From the IMG/VR virus record IMGVR_UViG_3300020179_003166, positions 1 through 20,536 of that record: a stretch of 20,536 bases of DNA; one strand, given 5' to 3'. Of the stretch, positions 2,024 through 2,907 are shown one piece after another. The notes under the pieces are model-generated. The model was not told the origin of the DNA and ran no database searches. It worked only from the letters and a program-made list of their open reading frames with translations. The position numbers and the translations under genes are program-made. Origin of the DNA: a virus. How positions within the stretch are numbered: position 1 is the stretch's first letter; each line of letters begins with the position of its first letter.

Positions 2024-2092
2024 AACATCACTTGCATTTACAAGGTGCTAAATAATTTCGTTGTAAAATAAGTAAGGTAAGGACCGTTATAG

Positions 2093-2152
2093 GCGTTGGG
2101 ACCGAGGGCGCGGGTCATCCCATGCGACCCTCGGTCCTGGCGTGTTTTTTTT
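2093..2152 (+). terminator. Rho-independent terminator after the HNH gene
   Basis: A perfect 10-bp GC-rich stem (2099-2108 with 2128-2137) is extended outward by G-U and Watson-Crick pairs to about 2093/2143, with a 19-base loop. One base later a run of eight T residues (2145-2152) begins. Stem plus immediate T-tract is the classical intrinsic terminator layout. It lies about 70 bases downstream of the HNH stop and separates the first recombination genes from the block beginning with the RuvC-like gene. Confidence 0.88.
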
Positions 2153-2361
2153 GTTGTGCTGCATGTATCTGTTTACCTGTATTAGCGATTTGATAGTGCT
2201 ACTCTGAGCTCGGCTAGCCATTTCTCAAAAAGAAAGGCAGGTGGTCCCGAATCTAGTAGTGACAACTACGCAAAGTAAATACGGGTGAAAATTCGTATGA
2301 AATCCCGCCGGTCTTTGGCTAATGGGCCGGCGGGTCTTTGTTTCTGGACTAGGGTTTTTTT
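2153..2361 (+). promoter_or_regulatory. Non-coding leader upstream of the RuvC-like gene
   Basis: About 209 bases without a plausible gene, lying between a strong terminator and the next start codon; it should therefore hold a promoter and the 5' leader of the downstream transcript. A clear -35/-10 pair is not visible. Visible RNA structure includes: a 5-bp hairpin GTAGT/ACTAC with loop GACA (2256-2260 with 2265-2269); an enclosing CCCG/CGGG pair (2246-2249 with 2282-2285); a competing ATACG/CGTAT hairpin (2279-2283 with 2294-2298); and a GC-rich hairpin at 2304-2334. The CGGG at 2282-2285 could also pair with CCCG 2304-2307. These choices are mutually exclusive, as in attenuators and riboswitches. 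I recognise no known riboswitch class. Function is inference. Confidence 0.5.
2304..2334 (+). terminator. GC-rich hairpin before the RuvC-like gene (possible attenuator)
   Basis: A perfect 8-bp stem CCCGCCGG/CCGGCGGG (2304-2311 with 2327-2334) closes a 15-base loop. The bases directly after it (TCTTTGTTTC) are T-rich but not a clean T-tract; a run of seven T residues occurs only at 2355-2361, directly before the GTG start. It could therefore act as a weak or conditional terminator, a pause site or a translational element. The loop segment TGGCTA (2316-2321) is complementary to TAGCCA at 2215-2220, which would allow a long-range pseudoknot. Confidence 0.5.
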
Positions 2362-2907
2362 GTGCAACTCAATATTCTTGGACTTGACCTTTCTCTCACA
2401 TCCACTGGGTATTGTCATAACGGCGACGCAGGATATATATCCGTTAATGCTTCCGGTGCTAAAAGATTGCAAAACATTACAAGCGAAATAGGAAATATTA
2501 TTGTTGCAAATAAAATTCACGCGGTTGCCATAGAGGGTTATGCATTTGCGGCGAGACACTCTCAGGCTCATTCAATTGGAGAGCTTGGTGGTGTTGTCAG
2601 GGTCTTGCTTCTTTCTATGGATATTCCTTATGTTGTGATTCCGCCAACCTGCCGCGCAAAGTTTGCCACCGGAAAGGGCAATGCTGGAAAGTCTGAAGTA
2701 ATATCTTCTGTATCAGCTATTACGGGAATAGTCTGGAAGGGTGGGCATGCAGACGATATGTGCGATGCTTGGATTTTGGAGGAAATGGTGTTGGCTAAAT
2801 TGGGTTATGCAAAATTTACCTGGCCTTCAATTTCGCTTGCGGCGCTAGAGAAGATAGACTGGTCACCATTCGAGGGGATTATAAATGAACAGAACTCAAC
2901 CAATTAG
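2362..2907 (+). CDS. RuvC-like Holliday junction resolvase
   Basis: A 181-residue protein with an RNase H/RuvC-type fold. The first strand NILGLDLSLTSTGYC carries Asp9, followed by Glu58 in VAIEGYAF, then GELGGVVRVLL, the IPPTCRAKFATGKGNAGKSEV segment, and Asp132/Asp135 in HADDMCDAW. These are the four expected acidic catalytic residues of RuvC-type resolvases, which cut four-way junctions symmetrically with two metal ions. In phages they resolve branched DNA before packaging. The GTG start at 2362 sits right before the first strand, as in family members, with AGGG about eight bases upstream. The last 23 bases overlap the next gene. Together with the annealase and nuclease it makes a complete recombination toolkit. 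Crossover-junction resolvase is the best call; a general RuvC-fold nuclease is the alternative. Confidence 0.85.
   Translation: MQLNILGLDLSLTSTGYCHNGDAGYISVNASGAKRLQNITSEIGNIIVANKIHAVAIEGYAFAARHSQAHSIGELGGVVRVLLLSMDIPYVVIPPTCRAKFATGKGNAGKSEVISSVSAITGIVWKGGHADDMCDAWILEEMVLAKLGYAKFTWPSISLAALEKIDWSPFEGIINEQNSTN

What the first reader, a model, noticed from the sequence alone, without database searches (positions are those of the whole stretch)
2153..2361. Structured leader with competing hairpins before the RuvC-like gene
This is the only long non-coding stretch. It follows a strong terminator and carries at least three hairpins. CGGG at 2282-2285 can pair with CCCG upstream (2246-2249), can be part of the ATACG/CGTAT hairpin, or can pair with CCCG of the GC-rich hairpin at 2304. 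Such mutually exclusive pairings are what an attenuator or riboswitch would show. I recognise no known class, so this is the best candidate for an undescribed element in the window.
Basis: partly seen in the sequence, partly recalled or inferred. Interest (0 to 1): 0.62.

Follow-up and report, generated by a model that had tools for sequence, protein, structure and literature searches.

The report
Phage small RNAs aimed at ribosomes
The stretch before the RuvC-like gene is not a riboswitch leader but two previously unlisted phage small-RNA genes, one matching (in antisense) a vital part of the host's 23S ribosomal RNA and the other the tail of its 16S ribosomal RNA, which suggests that these phages steer the host ribosome with RNA instead of protein.

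Summary
The hairpins are real and conserved, but the "leader before RuvC" is not a leader. RuvC has its own -10 box (TAnnnT) 6-8 nt before its start codon in 28 of 29 relatives (0-4 of 29 at control offsets), so its mRNA should be leaderless. The 338-nt gap holds two independently promoted, terminated small RNAs. The A seed is exactly antisense to 23S rRNA 1914-1931 (helix 69 onward): 13 nt in the window, 17-18 nt in relatives. B's AAAGG(n)AGGTGRTCC is complementary to the 16S 3' tail. Both sit between HNH and RuvC genes in dozens of environmental phages with actinophage-like genes; A also occurs in an unrelated phage lineage. Best explanation: paired rRNA-targeting sRNAs that remodel host translation. 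Complementarity, structure and promoter signals are computed results; ribosome binding and effect are inferred. The proposed competing pairing is partly supported (two of three alternatives), but not as an attenuator of RuvC.

The parts
2064..2069 (+). -10 box (TAAAAT) of RNA A
   Evidence: TAnnnT ends exactly 8 nt before the TTAGG seed in 48 of 68 distinct A elements
2076..2152 (+).
   Evidence: conserved between HNH and RuvC in most loci carrying it; hairpin covaries; start inferred from the -10 position
2080..2092 (+). RNA A seed AGGACCGTTATAG, exact reverse complement of E. coli 23S rRNA 1914-1926 (helix 69, 3' side); 17-18 nt to about 1931 in relatives
   Evidence: mean column entropy 0.07 bits against 0.65 in the stem
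2094..2143 (+). RNA A hairpin, followed by T8
   Evidence: fold -40.3 kcal/mol, z -5.4; 10 of 13 pairs with changes on both sides in relatives, G-U pairs included
2172..2177 (+). TTTACC, upstream promoter element of RNA B, 22 nt before its -10 box
   Evidence: TT(T/C)AC 21-22 nt before TAnnnT in 19 of 19 distinct promoters of this group
2197..2205 (+). extended -10 box (TGC TACTCT) of RNA B
   Evidence: TAnnnT 6-8 nt before the RNA's 5' motif in 32 of 32; TGn in 19 of 19
2213..2345 (+). RNA B: about 130-nt stand-alone small RNA (the element of the finding)
   Evidence: covariance model R1, window hit 2211-2343, 99 bits; relatives down to E about 1e-3
2217..2238 (+). P1 stem: GCC 2217-2219 with GGC 2236-2238, inner TTTCT 2221-2225 with AGAAA 2231-2235
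   Evidence: GCC/GGC 100% paired in 17 relatives; inner stem read by eye
2233..2247 (+). AAAGGCAGGTGGTCC, complementary to the 16S rRNA 3' tail GGATCACC(T)CCTTT
   Evidence: 16S tail is the best rRNA duplex partner in 23 of 45 B RNAs and within the top 12 of about 278 sites in all; A/G variation keeps the pair with U
2246..2285 (+). P0: CCCG 2246-2249 with CGGG 2282-2285, encloses P2 and overlaps the anti-16S motif; excludes full P3
   Evidence: kept in the subfamily against shuffles p < 0.001, permutation p = 0.066
2256..2269 (+). P2 hairpin GTAGT/ACTAC
   Evidence: 3 of 5 pairs with changes on both sides
2279..2298 (+). P3 hairpin ATACGGG/TTCGTAT
   Evidence: matched strands against permuted strands p < 5e-5
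2304..2345 (+). RNA B terminator CCCGCCGGTC/GGGCCGGCGGG plus TCTTTGTTTCT
   Evidence: 5 of 10 pairs with changes on both sides
2350..2355 (+). -10 box TAGGGT of the RuvC gene, 6 nt before GTG
   Evidence: 28 of 29 distinct relatives have TAnnnT 6-8 nt before an in-frame start; 0-4 of 29 at other offsets
2362..2907 (+). RuvC-like Holliday junction resolvase, predicted leaderless
   Evidence: Pfam PF02075, PHROG 159

Best explanation
The gap carries two phage-encoded trans-acting small RNAs that target host ribosomal RNA. RNA A exposes a nearly invariant 5' seed antisense to 23S rRNA helix 69 and the strand after it (1914-1931), held on a terminator hairpin. RNA B carries a stretch complementary to the 16S rRNA 3' tail (about 1529-1542, anti-Shine-Dalgarno included), framed by P1, P2, a switchable P0/P3 segment and a terminator. 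Made from their own promoters during infection, they would pair with free or maturing subunits, block SD-dependent 30S initiation and 50S function or joining, and so shift translation away from host mRNAs, perhaps towards leaderless phage mRNAs such as that of RuvC. Computed here: separate promoter signals, terminators, covarying stems, invariant seeds, complementarity. Inferred: expression, duplex formation on ribosomes, direction of the effect.
For: A: 13 nt (window) to 17-18 nt (relatives) exact antisense to 23S 1914-1931. It is the dominating rRNA match in 1.83 Mb of phage loci (158 loci against at most 13 for any other site; some loci were selected by this motif). Among 80 loci selected only by RuvC protein, 23 have the exact core, always on the RuvC strand, none reversed. 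Seed entropy 0.07 against stem 0.65 bits; 10 of 13 stem pairs with changes on both sides, 0/500 shuffles. -10 box 8 nt before the seed in 48/68. Same seed in an unrelated lineage with its own -10 and terminator (L154, L159, L161, L163, L186, L212, L215-L217). B: 39 of 80 RuvC loci; covariation; promoter 32/32. 16S tail is the top rRNA partner in 23/45, and divergent subfamilies (L072, L139, L147, L181) reach it with different sequence. [quoted passage not shown]
Against: No expression or binding data. B's motif resembles a strong Shine-Dalgarno sequence and could serve translation; 9 of 31 B RNAs have a start codon at usable spacing. In most B RNAs an extra base interrupts the match, and for about half another rRNA site gives an equal or better computed duplex. 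In predicted folds the GGUGGUC stretch is partly paired. Helix 69 is folded and shielded in mature 50S, so A would need to invade or act during assembly. Many A hairpins lack a U-run. No actinobacterial rRNA was at hand; E. coli and one alphaproteobacterium were used for 23S and E. coli for 16S. The host itself is inferred.
Confidence: 0.58

Rival explanations
1. Cis-acting attenuator or riboswitch leader of the RuvC gene.
For: Hairpins before a terminator directly upstream of the gene; competing P0/P3 segment partly supported; B adjoins RuvC in the window's group.
Against: RuvC has its own -10 box 6-8 nt before its start in 28/29; in the second group A lies between B and RuvC; the switch segment does not pair with the terminator arm (p = 0.09); no Rfam class.
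Confidence: 0.08
2. rRNA shields: A and B pair with rRNA to protect it from host toxin RNases that cut these places as an anti-phage response. In mycobacteria RelE1 and MazF11 cut 16S just upstream of the anti-SD, and MazF toxins cut 23S helix/loop 70.
For: Nearest cultured relatives of RuvC and the exonuclease are actinophage proteins; RelE1 cuts four nucleotides before U1537, inside the stretch B would cover, and MazF3 cuts helix/loop 70 next to A's target (PMC12620021; PMC12274833).
Against: The duplexes would themselves hinder initiation; A's complement ends near 1931 and does not cover the helix-70 cut (position from my own knowledge); no toxin of the true host is known here.
Confidence: 0.14
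3. B is a mini-mRNA: the 16S-complementary motif is a Shine-Dalgarno site for a short leader peptide (for example MSSG..HGKEA in one group).
For: In the second group, L028/L069/L070 and L181 an ATG follows at about 7 nt; L035 has TTG.
Against: Usable start codon in only 9 of 31 distinct B RNAs; the TCTAG-P2 block is 19/8/4 in length modulo 3 while CGGCAA stays, so no frame is kept; the canonical GGAGG is interrupted while the non-SD part GTGRTC is nearly invariant.
Confidence: 0.1
4. Other sRNA or DNA function: A's seed is a DNA site (rRNA-gene homing or attachment site like I-CeuI's) and B an sRNA with an unknown target or protein partner.
For: The A seed is part of the known I-CeuI recognition site (own knowledge); an HNH gene lies next to it.
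Against: Only 17-18 bp shared; fixed distance to a -10 box; hairpin compensations including G-U pairs point to RNA; the second A lineage (L159) shows no similarity to the window's HNH or RuvC nearby.
Confidence: 0.1

Closest known systems
Phage-encoded trans-acting sRNAs with a 5' seed and terminator
   Same: own promoter, short transcript, conserved seed, stable terminator stem
   Different: the apparent target is rRNA, not an mRNA; two RNAs side by side aimed at both subunits
Synthetic antisense PNAs against helix 69 and the 16S mRNA-binding site (PMC7038079)
   Same: same two rRNA sites, antisense principle; shown to inhibit growth
   Different: man-made; A and B are natural, structured, conserved RNAs
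Mycobacterial MazF/RelE toxins that cut the anti-SD and helix/loop 70 (PMC12620021, PMC12274833)
   Same: hit the same two regions of 16S and 23S rRNA
   Different: protein nucleases, host-encoded; no RNA guide
I-CeuI/I-CreI 23S rRNA homing sites
   Same: A's seed is the complement of the core of this conserved 23S sequence (own knowledge)
   Different: A is a transcribed seed on a covarying hairpin, not a complete recognition site
Riboswitches, T-boxes, attenuators
   Same: alternative helices before a terminator
   Different: not co-transcribed with the downstream gene by the evidence here; no Rfam match

Membership tests
Cis-regulatory attenuator/riboswitch of RuvC | element lies in the 5' UTR of the controlled gene's mRNA | tested here: not met
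   RuvC -10 box 6-8 nt before the start in 28/29; element A intervenes in group 2
Cis-regulatory attenuator/riboswitch of RuvC | mutually exclusive helix that disrupts the terminator | tested here: not met
   switch segment against terminator arm p = 0.09; only P0 against P3 supported
Any Rfam 15 family | score at or above gathering threshold | tested here: not met
   (only two tRNAs, elsewhere in L159); only chance-level matches
Trans-acting antisense sRNA | own promoter and terminator | tested here: met
   B 32/32, A 48/68 at fixed distance; terminator stems covary; transcription not measured; many A hairpins lack a U-run
Trans-acting antisense sRNA | conserved accessible seed complementary to a target | tested here: met
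   A: 13-18 nt exact to 23S, mostly unpaired in folds. B: 16S tail, interrupted match, accessibility doubtful
Trans-acting antisense sRNA | duplex with the target in the cell | not testable with these tools
   needs crosslinking or chimera sequencing
Small mRNA / leader peptide | conserved reading frame and start codon | tested here: not met
   start codon 9/31; block length modulo 3 is 19/8/4

The most novel reading that the evidence does not exclude
A widespread group of environmental, probably actinobacterial, phages carries a two-RNA system in which one RNA pairs with the anti-SD tail of 16S and the other with helix 69 of 23S, reprogramming or disarming host ribosomes during infection; to my knowledge the first natural sRNAs whose target is functional rRNA of both subunits.
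Probability: 0.5. Interest if true: 0.92.

Novelty: categorically new. Interest (0 to 1): 0.77.

Why it matters
Known phage attacks on host translation mostly use proteins (for example PMC10914614). If A and B work as inferred, some phages do it with antisense RNA against the two most functional rRNA sites, which are also the sites hit by mycobacterial toxins and by synthetic antisense antibacterials. It gives two new RNA families with simple tests, a possible reason for leaderless phage genes, and natural templates for rRNA-directed antisense agents.

Tried and rejected
Rfam at gathering and permissive thresholds: nothing relevant. tRNA/tmRNA: none in the window. Nucleotide search of 50,697 phage records for the gap, A and B: no homologue; the 23-nt Klebsiella phage hit has no supporting context and was treated as chance. 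Genome-contig scan with the B pattern: one hit, Vineibacter (L225), treated as chance and not followed. L097 B-pattern hit lies in repetitive, apparently coding DNA and is chance. Weak R1 hits in L186 were treated as chance. Peptide in B: frame not kept. A:B pairing (GGTCC with GGACC): considered, not needed, not tested. A general sequestering helix for GGTGGTC across all B RNAs: not supported (mean z -0.47). Exact 13-mer rRNA matches other than 23S 1914-1931: those inspected recur in a few related loci at positions that look coding.

Full report
What is there. The window is a 20.5-kb environmental phage contig (IMG/VR) with a contractile-tail module (tail sheath) and, at its left end, a recombination block: exonuclease, a 191-aa ORF, HNH, gap, RuvC-like resolvase, a 118-aa ORF, ParB-like protein. 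The nearest cultured relatives of RuvC are mainly phages of Gordonia, Mycobacterium and Streptomyces, and those of the exonuclease mainly phages of Mycobacterium and Rhodococcus, so an actinobacterial host is likely but not shown. The only long non-coding gap of this block is 2024-2361. Permissive Rfam and nucleotide searches of 50,697 phage records found nothing.

Comparison. RuvC relatives from IMG/VR (80 loci) show two conserved elements in this gap. In 39 of 80 loci a B core lies within 420 nt upstream of RuvC; in 23 the exact A core AGGACCGTTATAG is present, always on the RuvC strand and never reversed. In loci fetched by the RNA patterns the order is A-B-RuvC or B-A-RuvC or A-RuvC, nearly always between HNH and RuvC. 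The pattern scans selected those loci by A or B, so only the RuvC-selected counts are unbiased.

Element B is a structured RNA. On 17 relatives, P1, P2 and the terminator have 97.3% of cells paired (31-44% when slid), 8 of 18 pairs with changes on both sides, 35 such cells against 9.8 expected from shuffles. The covariance model finds further members down to E about 1e-3. A -10 box lies 6-8 nt before the 5' motif in 32 of 32, against 2.6% at random positions, and in the window's group the -10 box is extended (TGn) and TT(T/C)AC stands 21-22 nt before it in 19 of 19. The 5' motif is TCTAGCC in one group and AGGTACC in the other. So B is most simply a stand-alone RNA of about 130 nt.

RuvC is not its downstream cistron. 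In 28 of 29 distinct relatives a TAnnnT box ends 6-8 nt before an in-frame RuvC start; at control offsets 0-4 of 29. That is the spacing of leaderless actinobacterial genes (own knowledge); leaderless transcripts are common in mycobacteria (PMC12274833). In the second group element A stands between B and RuvC.

The competing pairings. In the window's subfamily (8 distinct members) the P3 hairpin is strongly supported: matched strands pair far better than permuted ones (p < 5e-5). The upstream pairing P0 (CCCG 2246-2249 with CGGG 2282-2285) is kept better than in shuffles (p < 0.001) but with marginal strand-swap covariation (p = 0.066). The pairing with the terminator arm is not supported (p = 0.09). 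I chose the strands of this subset by eye. Over the whole family no general sequestering helix is found. P0 overlaps the 16S-complementary motif, so a P0-to-P3 change on target binding is possible; this is inference.

Element A. Its seed is nearly invariant (0.07 bits mean entropy) while its 13-bp stem varies (0.65 bits) with 10 of 13 pairs changed on both sides and many G-U pairs. The seed lies 8 nt after a -10 box in 48 of 68. The seed is the exact reverse complement of 23S rRNA 1914-1931: 13 nt in the window, 17-18 nt in others; the target is identical in E. coli and an alphaproteobacterium. In 1.83 Mb of phage loci this is the only strongly recurrent 13-mer rRNA match; those others inspected recur in a few related loci at positions that look coding. 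A second, unrelated phage lineage carries the same seed after a -10 box and before its own terminator.

Element B's motif. AAAGG(n)AGGTGRTCC complements the 16S tail GGATCACC(T)CCTTT. Across 45 B RNAs the tail is the best rRNA duplex partner in 23 and within the top 12 of about 278 sites in all; divergent subfamilies reach it with different sequence (AGGGAGGGGGTGGTCC, AAAGGTGGTGATTT, GAAGGTGATCC). The A/G variation keeps pairing to U. It is not simply the ribosome site of an ORF: a start codon at usable spacing exists in 9 of 31, and the block before CGGCAA varies 19/8/4 in length modulo 3.

Mechanism. Most likely A and B are made during infection and pair with rRNA of free or maturing subunits, A on helix 69 (bridge B2a, own knowledge), B on the anti-SD tail. 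Antisense PNAs to exactly these two places inhibit bacterial growth (PMC7038079). The main functional rival is a shield against toxin RNases: in mycobacteria RelE1 and MazF11 cut just upstream of the anti-SD (four nucleotides before U1537 for RelE1) and MazF3 cuts helix/loop 70 (PMC12620021; PMC12274833). [quoted passage not shown] coli but has not been well supported since (PMC12274833), so that consequence is uncertain.

Known or new. No paper found describes natural phage sRNAs antisense to rRNA (open-access library only). The RNA families are new to Rfam 15, and an sRNA pair aimed at rRNA of both subunits matches no system known to me. The complementarity of A is firm; B's is likely; function is untested.

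Noticed in passing
window 2172-2205 and B promoters of its group: Promoters of RNA B have TT(T/C)AC separated by 21-22 nt (22 in most) from an extended -10 box (TGnTAnnnT) in 19 of 19, too long for an ordinary sigma-70 spacer; suggests a phage-specific activator or sigma factor.
   Followed up: partly
L159:10656-10760 and L154, L161, L163, L186, L212, L215-L217: Unrelated phage lineage with the same 18-nt anti-23S seed (ACCTTAGGACCGTTATAG) and its own terminator, whose stem GACCGTTA/TAGCGGTC overlaps the seed; no RuvC, HNH or RNA B like the window's found nearby.
   Followed up: partly
L021, L024, L046, L048, L103, L122, L131 (B element): In the second B group the 16S-complementary motif is followed by an ATG and a possible 14-19-codon ORF (MSSG..HGKEA); possibly a translated mini-ORF or a decoy start.
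   Followed up: partly
B terminator loops, for example L003, L019, L021: Terminator loops carry palindromes (GCTAGA in group 1, CTGCAG in group 2); in group 1 the loop can pair with the 5' end TCTAGCC, with wobble-preserving changes (L031/L032). Kissing or dimer contacts are conceivable.
   Followed up: no
L025, L050, L052 upstream of RuvC: Divergent A-like elements (CTACCTGAGGACCCAAATAGG, CTACCTGGGGATGGTATAGG) extend the antisense match on the 5' side but lose the centre; they may be degenerate or retargeted.
   Followed up: no
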